Shown piece after piece: positions 6,374 through 43,533 of a DNA stretch of 64,000 bases (position 1 is its first letter; each line of letters starts with the position of its first letter). Origin of the DNA: Aliivibrio wodanis. GTDB lineage: Bacteria; Pseudomonadota; Gammaproteobacteria; Enterobacterales; Vibrionaceae. The notes under the pieces were generated by a model that saw only the letters and a list, made by a program, of their open reading frames with translations, was not told where the DNA came from and did no database searches. The position numbers were made by a program, and so were the translations under genes. Where the stretch lies: assembly GCA_000953695.1 (NCBI GenBank), contig LN554846.1, positions 2,108,001-2,172,000 on the forward strand. The letters run 5' to 3'.

Positions 6374-7186
6374 CTATTGAGCTGCAATAAATTCTATCGC
6401 GTACTTATTGAATTCTTTTGGTCTATCAATATTACACACATGGCCACATTCTGGAATTTGTAATAACTGACTGTGTTCATGTACCGCTACCATCTCTTCT
6501 ACTGGCTTCATAAATAAATAATCATTTGCTCCCATCACATACAGTGTAGGAATTGCTAATTCTTTATCTTTGAAATAACGCATTAGTGGATTTACATCAG
6601 CGGCTAGCTTAAACCAACGTTTAAACTCTTTCTGACACAATTTTTTAGCTTCACGGGTAAAGATATGACGTGATTCTTTTTGGCTTTTTTGTGGCATAAC
6701 AACATAAGAGAACAGTTTATATAACCACATATAAGGCATGATATTTTTCGTCATATCTCCCATCTTAATTAAAAATTGAGATCGAAAATTAAAACGAGTA
6801 ATTGCCCCTGCCAACACCATAGAACTTACTCTATCTTGTGCTAACTCGGCCAAATTACGAATAATAATAGTGCCTAAAGACATACCAACAAAATGTGCAG
6901 ATTTAATATTAAGATGATCAAGTACATCAATAATATCTTGGCTTACCACTTTAAAAGAGTATTGCTTGTTCATGAATTCTTTAATTTTCGAGAAATTATT
7001 CGAACGACCATGACCACGTAGATCAATTAGCAGAACATTAAAATTCTTCCTAAAAGCAGCTACTTGCTTAAACCATGTTGTCGAACTTCCACCCGCACCA
7101 TGAACAAAAACAACCCATTTAGAGCTTGATTCATGTTCATAAGCTCTGTGGAATAATAAAGAATCTGACATCCATTCAACTTTCAT
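6374..7186 (-). CDS. Alpha/beta hydrolase, possible last member of the lipid operon
   Basis: A 270-aa alpha/beta hydrolase: oxyanion motif HGAGG near residue 29, nucleophile elbow GMSLG near residue 103, catalytic Asp probably in GANDYLF and His in ECGHVCNIDRP. The overall look is that of esterases or C-C bond hydrolases; the substrate is unknown. It lies 113 bp downstream of the nine-gene ketosynthase operon on the same strand with no clear terminator between, so it could be co-transcribed and act as thioesterase or tailoring enzyme. That link is inference. The ATG at 7186 has no good ribosome site; Met6 is an alternative start. Confidence 0.8.
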   Translation of the reverse strand: MKVEWMSDSLLFHRAYEHESSSKWVVFVHGAGGSSTTWFKQVAAFRKNFNVLLIDLRGHGRSNNFSKIKEFMNKQYSFKVVSQDIIDVLDHLNIKSAHFVGMSLGTIIIRNLAELAQDRVSSMVLAGAITRFNFRSQFLIKMGDMTKNIMPYMWLYKLFSYVVMPQKSQKESRHIFTREAKKLCQKEFKRWFKLAADVNPLMRYFKDKELAIPTLYVMGANDYLFMKPVEEMVAVHEHSQLLQIPECGHVCNIDRPKEFNKYAIEFIAAQ

Positions 7187-7299: not shown

Positions 7300-8172
7300 T
7301 TATAGATCTAAGGTTAGGGTTATTACTCTATATCGCCCCTCAAAACCATCAATAAACAGTAAGCGACCTTGTTGCTCTTCTATAAATAGATTCAAAGCAT
7401 ACAATTGATTGGTTTCGTAGAAATCACAAACAGGTTGGCAATCAAATAAATCACTAGGCACAACGTCCATAACACAAGTTATTAGATCATTTGAAACTCG
7501 TTGCCCAAATGCGACATGCGTTGCGAAAAAGGCTTGAGTCGTTAATAAGGAAGTCAGATATGCCAGTAACGATTGTTGGTTAAACTGTTGAGGTAATACA
7601 TCAATTTTTGCTTTAGCGCCATTCTTACTTGCACTTAATAACATCCAATTTGATCCCTCTCCTATCACCGTATCTTCTGAAAGTTCTAAATAACCATGAG
7701 GATCAGTAGATTGCTCTACTCGCTCATCCACCCCACCCAACAATATATTCTGTTCTTGTTGGTTTTTTAGACTCGCATCGGCTAGTAGTAATGCATTTTC
7801 AACCACAAACCCTTGCTGCGCTAAGTTTAGGTTTTTACTCTCAAGACCTAAAAATTTCGCAATATAAAACCCAGCAGTATTACTTAATGAGTTAATAAAA
7901 TCGACGGGTTTAGGAGGCATATTTTCCACATAACGCTGCTGACACAATCGATTAAATACCGATAAGTTCCCCTGACCAGAGACCATAAACAGCGCGGTAT
8001 TTTTATCTAATTCTTGCTGCTCTTTAATACCAGAGACACCTAACAGACCAAGCTGAATAAAGCGATCAGTTCGACGAACAAAACCGGACGCCACTTTTTT
8101 GCATTCTGCTTTAACATCAACATCTTGATCTTGTTTAATATTCACACTAGCAACGCAATGCACATACATCAT
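7300..8172 (-). CDS. Ketosynthase-like protein lacking the active-site Cys (chain-length-factor type)
   Basis: A 290-aa protein related to the N-terminal half of beta-ketoacyl synthases (RRTDRFIQLGLLGVSG; SNTAGFYIAKFLGLESKNLNLAQQGF). At the position of the nucleophilic Cys (TACxSG in KAS enzymes) it has Gln (AQQG, residues 119-120), the replacement typical of chain-length factors (KS-beta). The His motifs HGT and GHT are absent, and it is shorter than a full KS (about 400 aa). The end (LLFIDGFEGRYRVI) resembles the terminal FGFGG strand. Its start overlaps the stop of the active KS by 4 nt, so the two probably form a KS-CLF heterodimer. The closest family known to me is the short CLF of aryl polyene clusters. 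Confidence 0.75.
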   Translation of the reverse strand: MMYVHCVASVNIKQDQDVDVKAECKKVASGFVRRTDRFIQLGLLGVSGIKEQQELDKNTALFMVSGQGNLSVFNRLCQQRYVENMPPKPVDFINSLSNTAGFYIAKFLGLESKNLNLAQQGFVVENALLLADASLKNQQEQNILLGGVDERVEQSTDPHGYLELSEDTVIGEGSNWMLLSASKNGAKAKIDVLPQQFNQQSLLAYLTSLLTTQAFFATHVAFGQRVSNDLITCVMDVVPSDLFDCQPVCDFYETNQLYALNLFIEEQQGRLLFIDGFEGRYRVITLTLDL

Positions 8173-9311
8173 ACGACGTCCTTCTTCACAACAAGTGCAT
8201 TATTGTTACCACCAAAACCAAAACAGTTCAGTAAAAATACCCCAGAGTCACACGGGATGCTTTTTTGTGTTGGAGTCCAGTTAATCTCATCATCTTGAAT
8301 TTCAAAGTTTGACGTTTTAGGTATGAATCCGTTGTTAATGGCCTGCATCATGATCACTAACTCACTCACACCGCAACTGCCTAGCGTGTGACCAATATAC
8401 GGCTTTAATGAAAATAACGAGGGCGTTTGAGAAAACACTTGTTTCATGCCATTTATCTCTGCTAAATCACTTAGATTACTTGCGGTGCCGTGTGCCTTTA
8501 CAGCGGTGATATTTTCTTCGCTCACATTACTAGCTTGCAGTGCATTCTTAATTACTTGAGCGATACCAGAACCATCCGGGTTTACGCCTGTCACACTGTG
8601 AGTCTCACACTGACTACTGCCACCACAAAACTGCCAAGGTGATGGTTTAACATCATCACGACTCATTAACAGTGCACCTAAGGCTTCTCCCAATAGCAAT
8701 CCATCTCTGTTTGCATCAAAAGGCTTAGTTTGCTGCTGAGCCAATAATTGCATGGATACGAATCCCTCAAAAGAGTGAGAGGCGAACATTTCCATCCCGA
8801 TGACCAGTGCATAATCGATGACACCCGCCTCCAGCATCGTTGCCGCATCTAAAATGGCATTCGAACTCGAAGTACAAGCGGTGTTGTAAGTTAAACTAAA
8901 TGGATTTAAACCAAACTTAATCGTTAATCTATCGGCATACACACCATTTCCGACTCGACTACCTGAAAACTGAGGTGGATTATTTTCTTTAATACTCGAA
9001 CCAAGTGGGTGCATTAACGACATATCATTGGCGGCACAACCTAAAAACAGGCCACAACGTTGGCGATCTTGCTCTGATATATTGTGCAGTTCAAACAAGT
9101 TGCTGATCAATGTGTCCAAATAAGGAATAGGATCAAACAGCTCCTCAAAATTGCCGTTATTCTGAATCGCGTAATAAGGCAACGTTTTGATCTGTTCAAA
9201 TACATTCACTGATTTATCAACAGTAAGGTATTTGCCCGCTTTCATTAAATCCAATTGCTGTGTTTTATTGCCAAGTGCGCTTAACACGTCACCACCAAGT
9301 ATCGTAATCAT
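8169..9311 (-). CDS. Beta-ketoacyl-ACP synthase (KAS I/II type) of the lipid operon
   Basis: A 380-aa condensing enzyme with a complete Cys-His-His triad: Cys146 in NTACTSSSNA, His274 in VKAHGTASNLSD, His308 in PYIGHTLGSCG. The glycine-rich NCFGFGGNN end is typical. It should condense an acyl primer with malonyl-ACP by decarboxylation. It is clearly different from the housekeeping FabF elsewhere in the window and shorter by about 30 aa. It overlaps the chain-length-factor-like gene and follows the ACP by 5 bp, so I infer a dedicated KS/CLF/ACP module that makes a beta-ketoacyl chain for the DarB-like enzyme. Confidence 0.88.
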   Translation of the reverse strand: MITILGGDVLSALGNKTQQLDLMKAGKYLTVDKSVNVFEQIKTLPYYAIQNNGNFEELFDPIPYLDTLISNLFELHNISEQDRQRCGLFLGCAANDMSLMHPLGSSIKENNPPQFSGSRVGNGVYADRLTIKFGLNPFSLTYNTACTSSSNAILDAATMLEAGVIDYALVIGMEMFASHSFEGFVSMQLLAQQQTKPFDANRDGLLLGEALGALLMSRDDVKPSPWQFCGGSSQCETHSVTGVNPDGSGIAQVIKNALQASNVSEENITAVKAHGTASNLSDLAEINGMKQVFSQTPSLFSLKPYIGHTLGSCGVSELVIMMQAINNGFIPKTSNFEIQDDEINWTPTQKSIPCDSGVFLLNCFGFGGNNNALVVKKDVV

Positions 9312-9316
9312 CGTTA

Positions 9317-9586
9317 TTATTCTGGTTGTAGGTGATCAGCAAGGTGATTAATCGTCGTTACAATACGGCGAAACTCTTTTGGGTCTACCAAACGTAGATT
9401 AAAGTGACGCTGCAATAACATCGAAATTTGCAATCCATCTACTGAATCTAACTCTAAACCACTCTCATCAGAAAATAGCTCTACATCATCTGCCAATTCA
9501 TCTGCTGCGATTTCTTCTCTGTCACACTCTTCAAGGATCATGTTTTTAAGTTTTATTTTGAACTCTGTATCTAACGACCCTTTCAT
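9317..9586 (-). CDS. Acyl carrier protein of the lipid operon
   Basis: An 89-aa acidic carrier protein. The phosphopantetheine attachment motif is LELDSVDGLQI with Ser48. It is distinct from the housekeeping AcpP (77 aa, [10 protein letters not shown]). It overlaps the stop of the permease gene by 4 nt (ATGA) and precedes the ketosynthase by 5 bp. By context it corresponds to DarC-type carriers of dialkylresorcinol clusters. No phosphopantetheinyl transferase is encoded here, so a host enzyme must load it. Confidence 0.88.
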   Translation of the reverse strand: MKGSLDTEFKIKLKNMILEECDREEIAADELADDVELFSDESGLELDSVDGLQISMLLQRHFNLRLVDPKEFRRIVTTINHLADHLQPE

Positions 9587-10749
9587 GAACTTTTCCTTTG
9601 TTTATAAGTAAATACAATACTGGCAATCAATAGTGAAACCACGCCAAATAACGTCAATGCCATGGCTTCATTAAGCACATCCATTACGCTTCCTCGACGT
9701 AAGAAAATATCTAAAAAACCCTCTAATCCCCACGACATCGGAGAAATATTGGAGAAAGTTTGCATTGCTTCTGGCATCACAAACTTAGGCACCATGACGC
9801 CACCAATCGCCCCTAATAAAATATTAACAATGCCGCCAATCGTCGTTGCTTGTTCAATGCTATCAACCACGGTTGCAATCAAAATAGACAAACCAATTGC
9901 CGATAAACTGAGTGATAATGAAACCAATACCAAACCAAAAACCGAACCACCAATCGTTAATGGAGCCGCACCAAATAGAGGAACGATATACATGCCAACG
10001 CCAATCATTAACCAGACTTGCACTTGATTTATCAGCATATAAGGTAATATTTTCCCACCAAACAAGGCCGCTAAGCTGAGATTCATGGTGCTTAATCTCA
10101 TTAAGGTATTTTGTTTTCGCTCACTAATAAAAATGGTCGACATCGGAATAATGACAAAGAACAAGCCAAACACGATCCATGAAGGCACGCTTTGTTGAGT
10201 CGAGGTCGGTTTTTCATCTTGGGATAACTTGGCATATTGGATCTCCATTAATGACGATTCATCAAAAGAATTATCAGCACTGTCATCATCCAAAAAATCA
10301 AAATTATCTTGATTGGCAGAGTTCACTTCATCAAGTTTATTTCCCATCCAACTCAAGGCTATTTGGTTCTTGAAAATGGTCAGTAAAGAGGGAGAGGTAT
10401 CTGCAGCTACACTAATTTTCAGTGGTCGCTCATCTTGATAAAAACCATCAGGAATATCGATAATAAACTGCACCCCCTCTTCTTCAGGTGAGAGGTAGTC
10501 ATTCGAACTCAAAGGATACTGAGTTAATGTTTTAATAGTAGATAATTTAGTCGTTAACGCTTCACTAGCAGCGGTTGAATCTTGATCAATCACTGCATAA
10601 GTCATTAATGATTTATCTTCGTTCATCACATCTTTAAGTGCCAATGACATGATCAAGATAAACACCGCAGGCATAATAAACAATGCAGCTAACGCGTGTT
10701 TATCTCGGCCTACCAATAAGAATTCTTTTATCAACATGGCTTTAAACAT
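9583..10749 (-). CDS. ABC-2 type transporter permease of the lipid operon
   Basis: A 388-aa inner-membrane protein with one N-terminal transmembrane segment (about residues 20-40), a large periplasmic domain of about 150 residues rich in Asp and Ser, and five further segments in the C-terminal half, including the usual GGIVNILLGAIGGVMVPKF block near the NISPMSW motif. This is the ABC-2 architecture of exporters such as YhhJ/DrrB. It overlaps the ATPase gene by 8 nt and the ACP gene by 4 nt. It probably exports the operon product across the inner membrane; the substrate is inferred from context. Confidence 0.87.
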   Translation of the reverse strand: MFKAMLIKEFLLVGRDKHALAALFIMPAVFILIMSLALKDVMNEDKSLMTYAVIDQDSTAASEALTTKLSTIKTLTQYPLSSNDYLSPEEEGVQFIIDIPDGFYQDERPLKISVAADTSPSLLTIFKNQIALSWMGNKLDEVNSANQDNFDFLDDDSADNSFDESSLMEIQYAKLSQDEKPTSTQQSVPSWIVFGLFFVIIPMSTIFISERKQNTLMRLSTMNLSLAALFGGKILPYMLINQVQVWLMIGVGMYIVPLFGAAPLTIGGSVFGLVLVSLSLSLSAIGLSILIATVVDSIEQATTIGGIVNILLGAIGGVMVPKFVMPEAMQTFSNISPMSWGLEGFLDIFLRRGSVMDVLNEAMALTLFGVVSLLIASIVFTYKQRKSS

Positions 10750-11665
10750 CGGTTCTTCCTTTTGATGTTAGATTGATAAATAGAGATTCAAGTGTGGTTG
10801 CACCATAGCGGATTTGTTTCACTTTGATGTGCTGTTGTTCTAATTCACTGATCACTTGAGCAACCAATGTGCTGCTTGAATGATCTAATAGTAAGGTCGT
10901 CGTATCAACTACGCTCACGGCCTCCATATTCATAATAGACAGAGATAGCGGTACCGATGAATGAGGATAAAGCTCTACAATCACTTGCTGACTCTCTTGA
11001 TTATTAATCAATGAGGATATTGAACCTTGCTTAACGATTTGACCCGCATTCATGATTGCCACGTCATCACAGATTTTTTCAATCTCTGGCATATAGTGAG
11101 ATGTGTAAATCACGGTTTTATTGTCTGATTTATACGCCTTAATTGTATCCAAAATTTCATTGCGCGATTCAGGATCAATCCCCACTGTCGGCTCATCAAA
11201 AAATAGAACATCAGGGTTATTTAACAAACCAATCGCTATATTTAAACGGCGCTTTTGACCGCCAGATAAGGTTGATGATTTTTGATCCATCATGGCTGCA
11301 AGGCGATTCGTTTCTACCGCATACGCTAAATTATCTTTTAAGATTTTGCCTTTTATTTTTTGCACACCAGCAAAGAAGTTTAAGTTCTCTTTTACACTTA
11401 AATTCTCATAAAATGCCAAGCTTTGAGGGATCAAAGAGCAGCGCTGACGAATAACCTTTAGATTATTTTTTAGCGGTAAATCAAAAAAAGAGACCTCCCC
11501 AGAATCAAACGACACTAAGCCATTTAAAATGGAGATCAGCGTGGTTTTTCCTGCTCCGTTAGGACCGAGTAAACCATAAATACTATTTGAGGGAATGGAG
11601 AGCGTTAAGTTATCTAACGCTTTCTTGTTACCATAGGATTTATGTAAGCCACTAATTTTGATCAT
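10742..11665 (-). CDS. ABC transporter ATP-binding protein of the lipid operon
   Basis: A 307-aa ATPase: Walker A GPNGAGKTT (about residues 34-42), signature LSGGQKRRL, Walker B DVLFFDEPTVGID, and a switch His in YTSHYMPEIE. The roughly 85-residue C-terminal extension after the nucleotide-binding domain is usual for exporters of the drug and lipid (DrrA/CcmA-like) class. The ATG shares one base with the stop of the BtrH-like gene (TAATG), pointing to coupled translation. It pairs with the downstream ABC-2 permease. Confidence 0.9.
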   Translation of the reverse strand: MIKISGLHKSYGNKKALDNLTLSIPSNSIYGLLGPNGAGKTTLISILNGLVSFDSGEVSFFDLPLKNNLKVIRQRCSLIPQSLAFYENLSVKENLNFFAGVQKIKGKILKDNLAYAVETNRLAAMMDQKSSTLSGGQKRRLNIAIGLLNNPDVLFFDEPTVGIDPESRNEILDTIKAYKSDNKTVIYTSHYMPEIEKICDDVAIMNAGQIVKQGSISSLINNQESQQVIVELYPHSSVPLSLSIMNMEAVSVVDTTTLLLDHSSSTLVAQVISELEQQHIKVKQIRYGATTLESLFINLTSKGRTDV

Positions 11666-12687
11666 TAAAACGCTCGCATTAATGATAAGTACAATTGCTT
11701 TTCTTGCTCAGCAACTGATTCTAATTTTGCTGCAATAATATCAAATTCAATGGCTTTTTTATTTCGAGGGCGGATCGCTTTGGCTATTAATAATGCAAAT
11801 TCACGCCATTCATCACCAATCGCCGTCATCTCAATAGAAGCGGTTTTTAGCTTTTCGTTATCAATCAACTCTGACGCTTCTTGTAAAAAAGAAGCGTAGA
11901 TATAACGAAAACCGGCACCACCGGTACCAATCTCTTCTTGCATACGAATGATATGACCTAAAAATAACTTGGCATAATGCTCGTCTTTATTTTCTAATTG
12001 GCGAATATGCTTGGCTAAAAAATGCATCCCTTTTAAGCCTGCAATAGGCACAGGGGTTTTCAGCATCGTTTTAGCGGTTTTCTTAATGCTTTTTTCAATC
12101 ACACTAGGGTAATCAATCGAACTTGGAATATGCGTTGGATAATACAATGACCCTTTTGGAGCCATAACACCTTTAACAAAACGGGCTTTTTGTAGCGCTT
12201 TCTCTTCGGCTTCAACTAAGTGCTCAAAGACTGGGTCACTGATTTGATAGGTTTGATTTTTTTTATCAACAACAATGAGGTTATGTGCATTAAAATGAAA
12301 ACGCATCTCTTCTGGAAAATACGGCAACCAGAATACAGACGTTTGTGCGCCGACGATTTTACCTTGTTCAAGTAACTCATCTAATCGCTTGGTGCCTTGC
12401 TCTGGCTTTGAAAACTTCTCTAATTTCATTTTCAAACCGATGTTTTTTTGCAATCCTTTCATTATGGATTTTGGCATCGAACGATAGGCAATCAATGGCA
12501 TGCCGCTGAGTTTCACAAATGGAAGATAAGCAAACACTAACGCGCTTGATAAACCAAACACCATTGGCTCTGATAATGGTAAACCATGATGAGTAAGCAT
12601 CGAAGACATGACACCACTCTCGCAGTGTGCATAGTGTTTGTGTTGAAACTGAGTATTATTTTTTTTCAAGGTAGTGGTCATGAACAC
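11665..12687 (-). CDS. BtrH-like protein, candidate acyltransferase
   Basis: A 340-aa protein. The N-terminal part (KHYAHCESGVMSSML, then LSEPMVFGLSSALVFAY) fits the BtrH N-terminal domain, with Cys22 as the likely nucleophile and a His-Asp region (NAHNLIVVD...ISDPVF) that could complete a triad. The C-terminal half is helical. BtrH in butirosin biosynthesis moves an acyl group from a carrier protein to an acceptor amine. Here it could move the product from ACP to an acceptor, or cyclise or release it; that is inference. It lies 7 bp after the 137-aa protein gene and overlaps the ATPase gene. Met3 is an alternative start. The family call is from memory of motifs. Confidence 0.65.
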   Translation of the reverse strand: MFMTTTLKKNNTQFQHKHYAHCESGVMSSMLTHHGLPLSEPMVFGLSSALVFAYLPFVKLSGMPLIAYRSMPKSIMKGLQKNIGLKMKLEKFSKPEQGTKRLDELLEQGKIVGAQTSVFWLPYFPEEMRFHFNAHNLIVVDKKNQTYQISDPVFEHLVEAEEKALQKARFVKGVMAPKGSLYYPTHIPSSIDYPSVIEKSIKKTAKTMLKTPVPIAGLKGMHFLAKHIRQLENKDEHYAKLFLGHIIRMQEEIGTGGAGFRYIYASFLQEASELIDNEKLKTASIEMTAIGDEWREFALLIAKAIRPRNKKAIEFDIIAAKLESVAEQEKQLYLSLMRAF

Positions 12688-12694
12688 GCTTTAT

Positions 12695-13108
12695 TTATTT
12701 TTTATTCGAAAGGTTAGGTAATTTAGTTAATTGCTTAACTGAAATACCTAATGCATCACTGTAGGCCGAAAGCTTAGCTGGCGATAACTTAGCAAACACC
12801 GATGGTGAAAAATGACGTTTAACTCGCCATTGAAACCAACCAACAGATTGCGCTAACACCATTAGATCCATACGTTGAGCAAACATATGATAATACAAAG
12901 AGGACTTTTCCCCTTTTCTTGCTAACTCATACGCTTCAAGAGCTTGACGTTCAAACTCATTTAAGGCTTGCTTAGTGACTTCTTCTTCCACTTCCCAACC
13001 GGTAGAGGCGACCACTGAGTACTCGCCATTTTCATCGGTGGCATACACGGCTTTCGCATTATTAGCGTAGGTTGAAATATTATCTTGCGGGACTTTGTTA
13101 ACTTCCAT
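12695..13108 (-). CDS. Unrecognised 137-aa operon protein
   Basis: I do not recognise this protein. It is soluble, with no signal peptide. It has an acidic helical middle (EEEVTKQALNEFERQALEAYELARKGE), a Trp-containing stretch (VGWFQWRVKRHF) and an end (SAYSDALGISVKQLTKL) that looks like a small helix-turn-helix. The ORF is open further upstream to 13168, but the ATG at 13108 overlaps the DarB-like stop codon as TAATG, which marks the real start. Lying between the DarB-like and BtrH-like genes, it is probably a pathway accessory or regulator; its function is unknown. Confidence 0.7.
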   Translation of the reverse strand: MEVNKVPQDNISTYANNAKAVYATDENGEYSVVASTGWEVEEEVTKQALNEFERQALEAYELARKGEKSSLYYHMFAQRMDLMVLAQSVGWFQWRVKRHFSPSVFAKLSPAKLSAYSDALGISVKQLTKLPNLSNKK

Positions 13109-14256
13109 TAGACCACCTTCAATTGCATAAAGGCGGTAGAGAATCGTCCACTCTCTGGTACGTAACACAATAATGTATCACCCACTTTTAACTCACCAGA
13201 ATGGAACAGCTCTTCTAGCATGATATAAATAGAAGCAGATCCTGTATTTCCTTTGCTTGGTAAATTAGTAAACCAGCGTTCTTGTGGAATATCACAGCCA
13301 GCTTCTAGCATGCCTTGATACAGACGATCACGGAAGTAACCTGATGAGTAATGAGGAACAAAATAGGTCACTTCATCCGCGTTCACTTTACCTTGCTCAA
13401 CTAACTCTTTTAGCGGCTTGGTTACCGTGTATTCAACAATATTATCGTTCAGTTGTTTTACGTCTTGCTTAACTGAAAATATAGATTGATCTAACCACTC
13501 TTGAGATCCATATTCACGCCAGCCTTTTAAGCTGCCATCTGCTTGTTTTTCAGCACCCGCATACATACAAGCATCAAGTTCATTCGCGTAGGATTTTTGC
13601 ATCATCCATTCAATTTCAAGGGAGATTGAATCCGTATTAGGTTGAGACGTTAATAGTGCAGCACCCGCCCCATCACTTAACATCCAACGTAAGAAATCTT
13701 TTTCAAAAGCAATCTCAGGTTGGCGTTCTAGTTCATCCACCACATTTTCAATTTCAGCTTCAAACTTATTGGCTCTCATCATCGCTGATGCATTTTCAGA
13801 CCCGGTGACCACGGCATTATTACTTTGGCCGCTTAGAATCGACATATAGCCATATTTTAATGACATGGTTCCCGACAAGCAGATCCCAGAGGTTGCAATC
13901 ACTTCACAGCTAGGGATCCCGAGTTCACCGTGCACCATTAGGGCATGATTTGGTAAAATTTGATCCGCAATCGTCGTACCACAAGCTAACAACTCGGTGG
14001 AATTAATATCAAAGGAAAGTGACGATAATTTTCTGATCGCTTCTGCTGTTAGCTCAGTATTCGTGTGCGTCGTTTCACCGGTTGCAGGATTAATTGCATA
14101 ATAGCGCTGCTTAATTTTGTTGGATCGCAAAATGAGATTTTTTGCACGAGAGGGACGCGAACCAACTTGTCCAAGAACGTTTTCGATTTCTTTATTACCA
14201 ACGCCATCATTAGGCAAAAAAGCCTGAATGTCATTGATATATACTTTTTTATTCAT
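13108..14256 (-). CDS. darB: DarB/StlD-type beta-ketosynthase
   Basis: A 382-aa KAS III-like enzyme. The triad is intact: Cys126 in SGICLSGTMSL, His302 in FVPHYSSGYFRD, Asn337 in PSKGNTGSASIY. Start (YINDIQAFLPNDGVGN) and overall pattern match the StlD/DarB family, which condenses a beta-ketoacyl thioester with a second acyl thioester to form the cyclohexanedione ring of dialkylresorcinols and stilbenes. It begins 1 nt after the stop of the DarA-like gene and overlaps the next gene. This is the strongest marker of the pathway. The symbol is assigned by family resemblance; the acyl substrates are unknown. Confidence 0.82.
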   Translation of the reverse strand: MNKKVYINDIQAFLPNDGVGNKEIENVLGQVGSRPSRAKNLILRSNKIKQRYYAINPATGETTHTNTELTAEAIRKLSSLSFDINSTELLACGTTIADQILPNHALMVHGELGIPSCEVIATSGICLSGTMSLKYGYMSILSGQSNNAVVTGSENASAMMRANKFEAEIENVVDELERQPEIAFEKDFLRWMLSDGAGAALLTSQPNTDSISLEIEWMMQKSYANELDACMYAGAEKQADGSLKGWREYGSQEWLDQSIFSVKQDVKQLNDNIVEYTVTKPLKELVEQGKVNADEVTYFVPHYSSGYFRDRLYQGMLEAGCDIPQERWFTNLPSKGNTGSASIYIMLEELFHSGELKVGDTLLCYVPESGRFSTAFMQLKVV

Positions 14257-14257
14257 T

Positions 14258-15172
14258 CTAACGTCCTGACGGTTTTTCGTAATAGGTAATGCTTTCTTCT
14301 ACTGCTTTCTTTCTAAAAGGTGAAATAAGTTTCTTTACTAATAAGTTTATCGGTACCAACGTTAATACCATTAGCGCTAAAAATACGGCGTATATAGTAA
14401 TCACTATTTTTCGAGGAAAAGAACCTGGCTTACCTGACTTTTGAATTAGCTTGCCCCACACCATAAATGAGCGTGTGGCGATTTTTTCAGAACCGATCAG
14501 TTTTCCATTTACTGTCACTGCATTCAGGTTTTTAAGTAGCGGTTCTTTTTTCTTTTCTAAATCATTTTCTAATGCACTAACAAGGCGATGACCAAAGCGT
14601 TCACTTTCTTGCAGATCTTGTTCAGATACCCCTGCAGCAGGGAAAATCCAAAATGGATCTTTTTTGCCGGTTAACAACCAACGAGGAGTAGTAATAAATG
14701 CATAAATAGACCCCCCTTGATCGGTTAATACCGCATTATCGATCAATGTACCACCTAACTCAGCAATAACCGCTTTCATCTTCTCTTGCGCCATTACCCA
14801 CATATCACGACAGGCAATAAAAGTAATAACCGGCTTATCTTTAATTAAACGCTTTGCTTGCGCTGTTTTAAGAAATCCAGTCATTGGAATTGAAGGAGAT
14901 AAAAACCACACCGTATAACCGATAATAACTAAGTCATACTCTTCTTCTAAATTTTCTGCAGGCTTCACTTCACAGCCATTCATATAAATCGCTTCAGGAA
15001 AAGCATCAAAGAATGGGTAAAACGACCATGGATAAGGGTATTTATTGACAGGCTCAACACAGTGATAATCAACCTTTACTTCATCACTTTGACGTAAAGG
15101 TGCAGTTGCGAGCTCAACAAATTTTGCAAGCTGCCCACTTTGAGAGTGAGAGACGACTAAAACTTTTTTCAT
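14258..15172 (-). CDS. darA: DarA-like dialkylresorcinol condensing/aromatising protein
   Basis: A 304-aa protein with a flavodoxin-like N-terminus (KKVLVVSHSQSGQL, phosphate-loop-like) and the blocks PYPWSFYPFFDAFPE (46-60) and GYTVWFLSPSIPMTGF (85-100) that I associate with DarA proteins. Residues about 254-280 form a hydrophobic segment flanked by basic residues, a probable membrane anchor. In DarA-DarB pairs, DarA is needed to turn the DarB product into the aromatic resorcinol. It is the first gene of the nine-gene operon; the ATG has no clear ribosome site. A plain flavodoxin or NAD(P)H-quinone reductase fold protein is the alternative. Confidence 0.75.
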   Translation of the reverse strand: MKKVLVVSHSQSGQLAKFVELATAPLRQSDEVKVDYHCVEPVNKYPYPWSFYPFFDAFPEAIYMNGCEVKPAENLEEEYDLVIIGYTVWFLSPSIPMTGFLKTAQAKRLIKDKPVITFIACRDMWVMAQEKMKAVIAELGGTLIDNAVLTDQGGSIYAFITTPRWLLTGKKDPFWIFPAAGVSEQDLQESERFGHRLVSALENDLEKKKEPLLKNLNAVTVNGKLIGSEKIATRSFMVWGKLIQKSGKPGSFPRKIVITIYAVFLALMVLTLVPINLLVKKLISPFRKKAVEESITYYEKPSGR

Positions 15173-15381: not shown

Positions 15382-15417
15382 ATGAATCGTTTAAAAAACA
15401 GCACAAATAACATATGA
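15382..15417 (+). CDS. Putative 11-codon leader ORF overlapping the GGDEF-EAL start
   Basis: ATG at 15382 is preceded by AGAGG at good spacing and encodes MNRLKNSTNNI. The stop TGA overlaps the ATG of the GGDEF-EAL gene (ATGA at 15414-15417). The downstream gene has no ribosome site of its own, so re-initiation after this ORF could set its expression. This is inference from the layout; a leader of this length could also be fortuitous. Confidence 0.35.
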   Translation: MNRLKNSTNNI

Positions 15418-17207
15418 TCTATTTTTGGAAAAACATTCAACGCCTCCACTTCTGGATAACTGCATTTTATTTTTTCTCTGTCGCTATCGTCAGCCACACT
15501 CTATTATCTGAGCATAATATTGGCGTTTACCTGTATGTTTTTTATCCGATATTAATGCTAATCGCGCGCTTTCATTCCAATAAAAAAATCGTTTATTACT
15601 CTTCTATTCTCTCTTTTTTGATCATTATTCTTGGGAACGCTATTGAACCACTGGATATGGACGCAATTGAAGAGTCTTTTATCGTCATTCCTCTTACCTA
15701 TATTATTCTCTATCCTGGTTCATTATGGCCAATAGCATCAGCGGTAATATTACTATTATCTTATGCCTCCAATATCCCAGCCTCTGAACTTGAAGAGTTC
15801 ATTGAAGATGCGCTTGAGTTGTTGGCTATTTCTGGTTTTGCTTCTGTTATGTCTTTTTATCAACAAAAACTTAGAAAAAAGATGGCTGATTATAAAAAAG
15901 ACAGTGAAACGGATTTTCTAACTCAATTAAATAACCGAAAGCGATTTTATTTTGACCTTAGCCAAATTAAATTAAAGAAAACGAACCAACAACAATTCGC
16001 ATTAATTCAAATTGATCTCGATAGCTTTAAACAAATTAACGATAATTTAGGTCATAACATTGGTGACTTGGTATTGATTGATTTTGCAGCTCGTCTAAAT
16101 ACCATAGAAACAGAAGACATTAGCACTTATCGAATTGGCGGCGATGAATTTACGATAATCATTAAAAACGCCGATATTATGACGGCAACCAACAGCTTAA
16201 TTCAAACTATCTTAAACTTTTCCACTACACCTTATAAGCATTTAAAGTCACACTACAACCTTACGACGAGTATTGGCGTATCGCTATATGAAGATTGTTC
16301 AAACCTCACTAATCTTTGGTGTAGAAATACTGATATCGCAGTATATAAGGCAAAACAGCAAGGTAAAAATTGTGCTCAGTGGTTTAATCAAGCGTTAATG
16401 CAAGAAACTTTTAGGCGCTATCAACTTGAGAAAGAATTATCGACTGCATTAAACGAAAAGCAATTTCATCTTCTTTATCAACCTAAAGTCGTAATACCCA
16501 CGAATACGATCGCAGGAGTAGAGGCACTAATTCGCTGGAACCACCCAGAACTGGGAATGATATCCCCTCTTGAATTCATTTCAATTGCAGAGAAAAGTCA
16601 CGACATTATACCAATGGGGCGATGGGTATTAAATGAGGCGTGCAAACAAGGTAAAGCATGGTGTGATAACGGAACCCCTATTTCTATTTCGGTTAATGTT
16701 TCCGTCGTTCAATTATCCCATGATGACATTATCGGCTCTGTCCGTGATGCTTTGAACGATTCAGGATTAGAAGCCAAATACCTGCAACTTGAAATAACTG
16801 AAACCGCCTTAATGAAACAGCCAGAAAAAGTGATCCAACAGTGCATTCAATTACGCAAATTAGGAGTGACAATTGCCATTGATGACTTTGGTATTGACTA
16901 TTCATCTCTTCGTTATCTAAAACAATTACCTGTTGATATTATTAAAATCGATAAGTCATTTATTGATGATTGTGCAACGAACGAAAAAGATCACATGATT
17001 GTTCGTACCATTATTCAACTCGGTCATAACTTAGGGATTGCTGTTACCGCTGAAGGTATTGAAGATAAGGAACAGCTTAATATACTGAAAATTGAAGGGT
17101 GTGATAAATACCAAGGGTATTACTTTTCAAAGCCTGTCGACGACTCACAAATTAATACATTACTCTTAAACCAAAGAGTTCTGCGCAACACTCATGCAAT
17201 AAAATAA
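15414..17207 (+). CDS. Membrane-bound GGDEF-EAL cyclic-di-GMP enzyme
   Basis: A 597-aa protein. Residues 1-150 hold about five to six transmembrane segments with no recognisable extracytoplasmic sensor. A GGDEF domain follows (about 165-320), with an intact GGDEF motif at 242-246, then an EAL domain (about 340-590) with EAL at 370-372 (VEALIRW) and IDDFG near 490. Both catalytic signatures look intact, so it could make or degrade c-di-GMP. The start lacks a ribosome site and overlaps a short leader ORF. It is divergent from the lipid operon; no functional link is evident. Confidence 0.92.
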   Translation: MIYFWKNIQRLHFWITAFYFFSVAIVSHTLLSEHNIGVYLYVFYPILMLIARFHSNKKIVYYSSILSFLIIILGNAIEPLDMDAIEESFIVIPLTYIILYPGSLWPIASAVILLLSYASNIPASELEEFIEDALELLAISGFASVMSFYQQKLRKKMADYKKDSETDFLTQLNNRKRFYFDLSQIKLKKTNQQQFALIQIDLDSFKQINDNLGHNIGDLVLIDFAARLNTIETEDISTYRIGGDEFTIIIKNADIMTATNSLIQTILNFSTTPYKHLKSHYNLTTSIGVSLYEDCSNLTNLWCRNTDIAVYKAKQQGKNCAQWFNQALMQETFRRYQLEKELSTALNEKQFHLLYQPKVVIPTNTIAGVEALIRWNHPELGMISPLEFISIAEKSHDIIPMGRWVLNEACKQGKAWCDNGTPISISVNVSVVQLSHDDIIGSVRDALNDSGLEAKYLQLEITETALMKQPEKVIQQCIQLRKLGVTIAIDDFGIDYSSLRYLKQLPVDIIKIDKSFIDDCATNEKDHMIVRTIIQLGHNLGIAVTAEGIEDKEQLNILKIEGCDKYQGYYFSKPVDDSQINTLLLNQRVLRNTHAIK

Positions 17208-42579: not shown

Positions 42580-43533
42580 TTAAAACTTAACGAGTGCAGA
42601 ACCCCAAGTGAAACCACCACCAAATGCTTCGAGCAATAATGTTTGGCCTCGTTGGATTCTACCATCACGTACTGCTTCATCTAGCGCTGTAGGCACTGTG
42701 GCAGCAGAAGTATTACCGTGACGATCGAGTGTAACAACAACTTGATCCATCGACATGGATAGCTTCTTCGCTGTTGCTTTAATAATTCGTAGATTTGCTT
42801 GATGTGGCACTAACCAATCTAACTCAGATTTATCCATTTGATTTTTCTTGAGAGTTTCCTTCACCAAATTAGACAGTTGAGTTACAGCTACTTTGAATAC
42901 TTCATTACCAGCCATATATAACCATTTATCTGCTTCATCGTTTTTACGAGAAGGAACTGGCAATGAAAGTAATTGACCAAACTTGCCATCAGCATGTAGG
43001 TGAGTAGAAATAATACCCGGCTCTTCACTTTGACCAATGACTACCGCACCTGCACCGTCACCAAATAAGATGACTGTTGAACGATCTGTAGGATCACAAG
43101 TATGAGAAACAGCATCTGAACCAATTACCAATACATTTTTTGCCATGCCTGTTTTAATGTGTTGATCGGCAACACTCAATGCATAAACAAAACCTGAACA
43201 AGCTGCTGATAAATCAAATGCCGGACAGCCTTTAATTTCTAGTAACCCTTGAACTTCACATGCAGCAGAAGGAAATGAGTACGTTGGTGTACTCGTAGCT
43301 AGAATAATAAGGTCAATATCGTTCTTATCAATTCCTGCCATCTCAATAGCATTAACAGAAGCAAGGTGAGCCATAGTAGCTACAGATTCATTTTCACCGG
43401 CAATGCGGCGTTCACTAATACCTGTGCGAGCTAAGATCCACTCATCACTAGTATCGACCATTTTTTCTAAATCCGCATTCGAACGAATTTGTGCTGGCAA
43501 ATAGCTACCAGTACCTAAAATTTTGCTATACAT
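42580..43533 (-). CDS. fabH: 3-oxoacyl-ACP synthase III FabH
   Basis: 317 aa. Triad: Cys in [12 protein letters not shown], His in VPHQANLRI, Asn in [10 protein letters not shown]. It condenses acetyl-CoA with malonyl-ACP to start chains. It lies 5 bp after plsX. It is clearly distinct from the DarB-like KAS III homologue. Confidence 0.97.

What the first reader, a model, noticed from the sequence alone, without database searches (positions are those of the whole stretch)
7300..15172. Nine-gene operon for a dialkylresorcinol-like lipid with its own exporter
Nine minus-strand genes with junctions that overlap (TAATG, ATGA, 8 nt) or are up to 7 nt apart encode a DarA-like protein, a DarB/StlD-type ketosynthase, an unknown protein, a BtrH-like protein, an ABC ATPase and permease, an ACP, a KS and a CLF-like protein. 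DarB/DarA/ACP sets are known to make dialkylresorcinols, and in Photorhabdus such molecules act as signals. The added KS/CLF pair, BtrH-like protein and exporter form a combination I do not know as a described pathway. No ammonia-lyase, ligase, ketoreductase or dehydratase is present, so it is not an aryl polyene cluster, and precursors should come from fatty-acid synthesis or beta-oxidation.
Basis: partly seen in the sequence, partly recalled or inferred. Interest (0 to 1): 0.88.

Follow-up and report, generated by a model that had tools for sequence, protein, structure and literature searches.

The report
Resorcinol half of a polyene pigment
A nine-gene bacterial operon very probably makes a dialkylresorcinol that is joined to a yellow aryl-polyene pigment made by a second gene cluster elsewhere in the same genome; the pigment type and the gene order are already known from other bacteria, so this is a new member, not a new pathway.

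Summary
The nine genes, strand and junctions are as described. The ketosynthase is StlD/DarB-type, not FabH. NCBIfam already names the "unknown" and BtrH-like proteins DarG and DarH. Across three genome draws, 33 of 34 genomes with DarH carry the polyene ketosynthase above its cut-off; the last has a truncated copy. DarH belongs to a papain-like acyltransferase family and keeps an invariant Cys-His-Asp, so it is the best candidate for forming the ester. The operon is present or absent within the genus. The product is likely a flexirubin/arcuflavin-type pigment, not a free signal. New member of a known kind; no chemistry was tested.

The parts
14258..15172 (-). darA: presumed resorcinol-forming aromatase; flavodoxin-like N-terminus with a conserved [ST]Q[ST]GQL stretch, one hydrophobic segment near the C-terminus (from about residue 257)
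   Evidence: no Pfam family, best NCBIfam match flavodoxin PRK07116 at E 0.075, not significant; stretch kept in 20 of 20 rows; hydrophobic segment. The name darA rests on position beside darB and synteny, not on a sequence match to a characterised DarA
13108..14256 (-). darB: StlD/DarB-type ketosynthase with Cys126, His302, Asn337 in the places of a KASIII-type catalytic set (set recalled)
   Evidence: NF005293 598.6 bits (cut-off 450); NF053539 523.2 (cut-off 550, not reached); StlD 5gk0 447 bits against at most 43 for any listed FabH; the three residues kept in 21 of 21 rows
12695..13108 (-). DarG (darD of Azoarcus): small conserved protein of unknown function, 137 aa from ATG at 13108
   Evidence: NF053536 DarG family 172 bits (cut-off 70); flexirubin DarG NF053545 124 (cut-off 170, not reached); no Pfam family; start site
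11665..12687 (-). DarH (darE of Azoarcus): BtrH-like acyltransferase family, Cys22-His135-Asp151; likely start ATG 12681
   Evidence: NF053550 506.6 bits (cut-off 300); PF14399 BtrH_N 168 bits, PF16169 DUF4872 192 bits; residues invariant in the alignments of 11 and of 50 sequences
10742..11665 (-). darF: ABC transporter ATPase, DrrA/NodI-like
   Evidence: PF00005 103.8 bits; TIGR01188 236 bits, under its cut-off 312
9583..10749 (-). darI: ABC-2 permease, six hydrophobic segments
   Evidence: PF12698 123 bits
9317..9586 (-). darC: acyl carrier protein with the attachment serine in LDSVD
   Evidence: NF006617 37.4 bits, under cut-off 70; PF00550 18.8, under cut-off 20.8; DS[VL]D kept in 18 of 18 rows shown
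8169..9311 (-). darJ: FabF-like ketosynthase with Cys-His-His
   Evidence: PF00109 and PF02801 above cut-off; Cys kept in 20 of 20 rows, but the first His is Gln in 3 of 20 (L047, L051, L053); own branch apart from ApeO, ApeR, FabF, FabB
7300..8172 (-). darK: chain-length-factor-like protein without active-site Cys
   Evidence: window protein: no Pfam match; 10 of 24 homologues match PF00109 and 3 match PF13723 at E up to 0.01; hhalign of the family to ApeC probability 85, E 6e-6, to ApeR probability 24, to the paired KS darJ not significant

Best explanation
The operon makes a 2,5-dialkylresorcinol (DAR) that becomes the alcohol half of a flexirubin/arcuflavin-type aryl polyene-DAR ester. Steps: darC/darJ/darK (ACP, ketosynthase, chain-length-factor-like partner) supply an ACP-bound beta-ketoacyl unit (inferred); DarB condenses and cyclises two acyl chains to a cyclohexanedione as StlD does (family-level evidence here; the reaction is recalled from the family); DarA oxidises it to the resorcinol (recalled family function; position only here). 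The aryl polyene cluster 1.14 Mb away builds the polyene acyl chain (genes found, not assayed). DarH moves the polyenoyl chain from an ACP to a phenolic hydroxyl, as BtrH moves an acyl group from ACP to an aminoglycoside (inferred). DarG assists DarH or DarA/DarB (guess). darF/darI carry the DAR or the ester across the inner membrane (inferred).
For: DarB family membership. Same gene order as azo0283-azo0293, whose DAR is part of arcuflavin (comparison by annotation and order, Azoarcus BH72 itself not fetched). Aryl polyene cluster in the same genome, G000:C1 957909-976313: aromatic lyase, AMP ligase, ACP, ApeC-type KS, ApeO-type KS (573 bits, cut-off 407), ApeR-type KS (765, cut-off 470), ketoreductase, ApeP dehydratase, thioesterase, GT/acyltransferases, LolA-like protein, MMPL/RND exporter (Ape names recalled from the E. 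coli scheme). Nesting of DarH in polyene-positive genomes: Vibrionaceae 10 of 10 DarH-positive against 117 of 197 overall (p 0.005); Pseudomonadaceae 16 of 17 against 81 of 183 (p 1e-5); phylum draw 13 of 13 against 88 of 398 (p 1e-9; product of within-family terms 6e-4). In the phylum draw the 13 genomes with DarB above cut-off are the same 13 as with DarH; of the 7 genomes with only a lower-scoring DarB-like hit and no DarH, 3 are polyene-positive. Five genomes with DarH-like hits under the cut-off: 0 of 5 polyene-positive. At least two of six polyene markers in the fetched flank of DarH in 15 of 80 loci. BtrH_N is described as part of an ACP:aminoglycoside acyltransferase close to the C39/C70 papain-like families (PMC10318531, passages), and Cys-His-Asp is invariant.
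Against: No chemistry was done. The two clusters are unlinked here. Within the window's own genus the nesting is not informative (13 of 14 genomes are polyene-positive, p 0.57). The polyene mark is one ketosynthase; the cluster was read through only in the window's genome. The flexirubin authors propose a ligase-like enzyme (FlxW) for the ester (PMC3992019, passages). The polyene cluster has its own acyltransferases for another lipid anchor. DarG and DarH occur without darA/darB in the fetched flanks of three loci, L085, L112, L144, so DarH need not act on a DAR. DarB does not reach the cut-off of the narrower NCBIfam DarB model (523 against 550). One DarH-positive pseudomonad (G614) has only a fragment of the polyene KS (268 bits). 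The first catalytic-type His of darJ is not kept in 3 of 20 rows, so the supply step may differ between lineages.
Confidence: 0.75

Rival explanations
1. The operon makes and exports a free dialkylresorcinol (antibiotic or LuxR-solo signal, as recalled for Pseudomonas chlororaphis and Photorhabdus); co-occurrence with polyene genes only reflects shared lifestyle.
For: It has its own ABC transporter; darA and darB of Chitinophaga give a DAR in a heterologous host (PMC3992019, passages).
Against: 33 of 34 DarH-positive genomes, from nine or more families, are polyene-positive; DAR was not detectable free in Azoarcus extracts (PMC3949708, section 18); in marine Pseudomonas the DAR part of such hybrids is reported to diverge from the free-DAR (HPR) cluster (PMC10165715, passages).
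Confidence: 0.15
2. DAR and polyene end in one ester, but the ester is formed by an enzyme of the polyene cluster (FlxW-like ligase or ApeD/ApeJ-type acyltransferases), and DarH/DarG do something else, such as loading acyl chains on the DAR ACP or shuttling DAR.
For: FlxW proposal in flexirubin; DarH and DarG without darA/darB in the flanks of three loci.
Against: DarH keeps the catalytic set of an ACP-dependent acyltransferase family and is absent from most genomes with polyene genes but no DAR (107 of 117 polyene-positive Vibrionaceae lack it).
Confidence: 0.2
3. An alternative resorcinol-polyketide, with darJ/darK making an elongated chain, gives a new lipid class unrelated to the polyene.
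For: darJ forms its own branch; no call gives the product of the Vibrionaceae operon.
Against: Genes annotated and ordered like darJ/darK belong to the Azoarcus cluster, whose product is a DAR; no ketoreductase or dehydratase family among the nine genes.
Confidence: 0.05

Closest known systems
dar cluster azo0283-azo0293 of Azoarcus sp. BH72 (arcuflavin)
   Same: Same functions in the same order: darA, darB, hypothetical, BtrH-like, ATPase, permease, ACP, KS, last gene (PMC3949708 Table 1); Rhodocyclales relatives fetched here show the first eight in that order by sequence (L080, L084, L098; darK not detected there)
   Different: Azoarcus has a PilT-domain and a prevent-host-death gene inserted; its polyene is xanthomonadin-like and starts from 3-hydroxybenzoate (no ammonia-lyase in its Table 1), here the polyene cluster has an aromatic ammonia-lyase
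aryl polyene-resorcinol hybrid clusters of Pseudoalteromonas and marine Pseudomonas
   Same: Same two halves; strain-variable presence goes with yellow-orange colour in Pseudoalteromonas (PMC9966250, passages)
   Different: There reported as one hybrid cluster; here 1.14 Mb apart
Flexirubin clusters of Bacteroidota
   Same: Polyene-DAR ester, DarA/DarB, tyrosine ammonia-lyase start (PMC3992019, abstract and passages)
   Different: Window proteins miss the flexirubin DarG cut-off, and the polyene lyase misses the FlxA cut-off (358 of 700)
darABC of Pseudomonas chlororaphis and Photorhabdus dar/stl genes (recalled)
   Same: DarB/StlD-type chemistry
   Different: Free DAR or stilbene products; no BtrH-like protein or this exporter module (recalled, not tested)

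Membership tests
Dialkylresorcinol biosynthesis (DarA/DarB) | StlD/DarB-type ketosynthase, distinct from FabH | tested here: met
   598.6 bits, cut-off 450; StlD 447 bits against FabH at most 43; own FabH is a different gene at 42580-43533; in the tree FabH is a saturated long branch outside 15 DarB rows. The narrower model NF053539 is not reached (523 of 550)
Dialkylresorcinol biosynthesis (DarA/DarB) | DarA aromatase beside DarB | tested here: inconclusive
   A conserved flavodoxin-like gene stands directly before darB in 68 of 80 loci, but no call matched it to a characterised DarA
Arcuflavin-type dar cluster | Gene order A-B-D-E-F-I-C-J-K | tested here: met
   Order and annotations; sequence-level in relatives. 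Azoarcus BH72 itself was not fetched
Aryl polyene-DAR ester pigments | Aryl polyene cluster in the same genome | tested here: met
Aryl polyene-DAR ester pigments | Ester of polyene acid and DAR in cell extracts | not testable with these tools
   needs extraction and mass spectrometry
BtrH-type ACP-dependent acyltransferases | BtrH_N domain with conserved Cys-His-Asp | tested here: met
   PF14399 168 bits, NF053550 507 bits; residues invariant
BtrH-type ACP-dependent acyltransferases | Acyl transfer from an ACP | not testable with these tools

The most novel reading that the evidence does not exclude
DarH is the unassigned ester synthase of the polyene-DAR pigments of Proteobacteria: a papain-fold, ACP-dependent acyltransferase that joins a polyenoyl-ACP to a phenol. 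Gain of the dar operon at one chromosomal site then switches a Vibrionaceae lineage from a lipid-anchored polyene to a DAR-ester polyene with its own export route, a modular exchange of the membrane anchor that can be read from presence or absence at that site.
Probability: 0.4. Interest if true: 0.5.

Novelty: new member of a known kind. Interest (0 to 1): 0.28.

Why it matters
Aryl polyenes are among the commonest bacterial pigment clusters, and the molecule that anchors the E. coli form in the outer membrane is stated to be unknown (PMC8253772, 2021, passages). Here a well-defined nine-gene block, present in 6 of 14 genomes of one genus, predicts which strains carry a resorcinol ester and names one enzyme, DarH, as the likely ester former. 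That makes the question testable by one deletion and one mass spectrum. The pathway itself is not new.

Tried and rejected
Rejected: DarB as FabH. Rejected: a stand-alone unknown pathway, after the Azoarcus table and the polyene cluster in the same genome. Considered the downstream alpha/beta hydrolase (6374-7186) as a tenth gene: it is 113 nt away, has a close copy in 13 of 14 genus members, with or without the operon (the fourteenth, G069, has only weak hits and 790 contigs), and was not found in the four fetched loci of other Vibrionaceae genera (L056, L057, L058, L061), so it is left out.

Weak or failed: solved-structure searches with DarK, DarH and DarA gave nothing useful. Profile comparison of DarK with its partner KS was not significant, with ApeC it was, so 'chain-length-factor-like' is a moderate claim. 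The first KS tree used some wrongly extracted sequences (wrong strand) and was thrown away; one search replaces it. In the DarB tree FabH sits on a saturated branch, so the family scores carry that point. The promoter scan gave 17 sites against a shuffle mean of 25, the terminator scan 8 against 6.3: nothing firm; a TTAAAA-16-TATAAT site at 15261-15234 before darA is only a candidate. The strata used for the within-family term were counted by hand from the rows. Of the second ACP-like ORF and the second dehydratase-like ORF of the polyene cluster (L008 7861-8112, 10048-10422) no family search was made.

Print searches: (25 of 47 papers listed); listings with titles and starts of abstracts only, apart from the papers whose passages are cited. 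None of the listed titles and abstract starts describes a dar operon in Vibrionaceae, but the library holds only open-licence papers; Table S7 of PMC3949708 could not be read here (no supplement look-ups) and the 89-strain list of its reference 1 was not looked up, so the Vibrionaceae occurrence may be in print.
Full report
Observation. The only correction is the start of the small protein: the conserved start is the ATG at 13108, giving 137 aa. The block lies between an alpha/beta hydrolase gene and a gene that reads as GGDEF/EAL, followed by a metE-like gene (last two names recalled from the look of the translations, not searched).

What the genes are. DarB matches the StlD/DarB family at 598.6 bits (cut-off 450) and solved StlD structures at 447 bits, against at most 43 bits for any FabH listed; the genome's own FabH is another gene inside the window. 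The small protein and the BtrH-like protein are in NCBIfam as DarG (172 bits, cut-off 70) and DarH, 'BtrH-related acyltransferase' (507 bits, cut-off 300). The KS (darJ) has Cys-His-His; its branch is apart from ApeO, ApeR, FabF and FabB; in 3 of 20 aligned rows the first His is Gln. The last gene (darK) is a KS-like protein without the active cysteine; of three comparisons its family is nearest to the chain-length factor ApeC. Two narrower models are not reached: NF053539 DarB (523 of 550) and the flexirubin DarG (124 of 170). DarA has no significant family match; its name rests on place and synteny.

Known elsewhere. Table 1 of PMC3949708 (seen: outline, sections 3, 18, 22 and passages) lists azo0283-azo0293 of Azoarcus sp. 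BH72: darA, darB, hypothetical, BtrH-like, ABC ATPase, a prevent-host-death and a PilT-domain gene, ABC permease, ACP, ketosynthase, hypothetical. Leaving out the two inserted genes this is the window's order. The product there is a DAR that the authors conclude to be esterified with a xanthomonadin-like polyene, arcuflavin (by mass spectrometry and labelling; no NMR). Hybrid polyene-resorcinol clusters are also reported for Pseudoalteromonas, where presence goes with yellow-orange colour (PMC9966250, passages), and marine Pseudomonas (PMC10165715, passages).

The other half is in the same genome. Contig C1 957909-976313 carries an aryl polyene cluster: aromatic amino-acid lyase (PF00221, 543 bits), AMP ligase, ApeC-type KS, an ACP (and a second ACP-like ORF), acyltransferases, ApeP dehydratase (and a second dehydratase-like ORF), thioesterase, LolA-like protein, MMPL/RND-type exporter, ApeO-type KS (573 bits), ketoreductase and ApeR-type KS (765 bits), plus an O-methyltransferase and a flavin enzyme beside it. 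It lies 1.14 Mb from the window's operon, so a reader of 64 kb could not see it.

Test of the link. I used DarH above its cut-off as the mark of the operon and the ApeO-type KS (NF006618 above 407 bits) as the mark of a polyene cluster. Vibrionaceae: 10 of 197 genomes have DarH, 117 of 197 the polyene mark, and all 10 have both. Pseudomonadaceae (the family of G250; its longest contig match is Pseudomonas subflava): 17 of 183 and 81 of 183; 16 of the 17 have both, and the last, a fragmented assembly (G614), has a truncated polyene KS that scores 268 bits over 185 positions. Phylum draw: 13 of 398 and 88 of 398; all 13 have both. Six of these 13 were also in the two family draws, so 34 distinct DarH genomes were seen and 33 pass. 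Random-draw probabilities are 0.005, 1e-5 and 1e-9; within-family terms of the phylum draw multiply to 6e-4, and within the window's own genus the test has no power (6 of 6 against 13 of 14). Five genomes with DarH-like hits under the cut-off have no polyene mark (G011, G273, G308, G386, G639). In the phylum draw DarB above cut-off occurs in exactly the 13 DarH genomes; eight further DarB-like hits score 302-398 bits, one of them in a DarH genome (G566), and of the other seven genomes three carry the polyene mark (G364, G389, G538).

Anatomy across relatives. 60 of 80 hold eight or nine of the nine genes within the fetched flank. darA-darB-DarG-DarH is the fixed core (68 of 80 in order); in these 68 the exporter/KS block is on the same strand in 38, opposite in 25, mixed in 2, not in the flank in 3. 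So the operon reads as two modules that are joined in Vibrionaceae. At least two of six polyene markers lie in the same flank in 15 of 80 loci.

History in the genus. Six of 14 genus members have DarH. In the five fetched besides the window, the block stands at the same place, beside the conserved hydrolase-purU-dinG genes; four also show the metE side, the fifth (L064) ends before it. Of the eight members without DarH, G019 has the window's arrangement (hydrolase, GGDEF/EAL gene at 77% identity, small ORF, metE) minus the operon, G044 has hydrolase and metE side adjacent, G065 has a spacer of about 0.5 kb (with only part of metE matched), and G061, G053 and G024 have about 6 kb of other DNA in the site (genes read only in G061). 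In G010 the metE side was not found within the fetched stretch, and G069 has no close copy of the hydrolase. The operon is therefore an accessory trait at a variable site; gain and loss were not told apart.

Mechanism. Shown here: family membership, conserved residue sets, gene order, nesting in polyene-positive genomes. Inferred: DarC/J/K supply the beta-ketoacyl unit; DarB condenses; DarA aromatises; DarH, related to an ACP:aminoglycoside acyltransferase of the papain-like class (PMC10318531, passages) and with invariant Cys22, His135 and Asp151, moves the polyene chain to the DAR hydroxyl; DarF/DarI export. The flexirubin authors suggested a ligase-like FlxW for the ester (PMC3992019, passages), so DarH's role is open.

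Verdict.

Noticed in passing
L085, L112, L144 (Syntrophaceae and Deltaproteobacteria MAGs): DarG and DarH stand together with no darA or darB match in the fetched 9-10 kb upstream; DarG-DarH may be a pair that esterifies other products.
   Followed up: partly
L189 7894-13868 (G061): The site of the dar operon is filled in G061 by about 6 kb of other genes (AraC-type regulator, EamA-like permease, PatB-like aminotransferase, PTS permease, LacI-type regulator; names from the look of the translations, not searched); G053 and G024 have a stretch of the same size there, not read.
   Followed up: no
window 15414-17207: A GGDEF/EAL protein next to the operon; only G019, which lacks the operon, has a close counterpart (77%, in the same place) among the other 13 genus members; the best match in each of the rest is under 40%.
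   Followed up: partly
G506, G364, G538, G566, G277, G389: DarB-like ketosynthases at 302-364 bits sit in open frames of 644-658 aa, suggesting a fused second domain, in genomes that lack DarH except G566.
   Followed up: no
G000:C1 957909-960254: A flavin-dependent halogenase/reductase-like gene and an O-methyltransferase stand beside the polyene cluster on the other strand; they may tailor the polyene head group.
   Followed up: no
L047, L051, L053 (darJ homologues): The first His of the ketosynthase Cys-His-His set aligns with Gln in these three relatives, so part of the family may not be a normal condensing enzyme.
   Followed up: no
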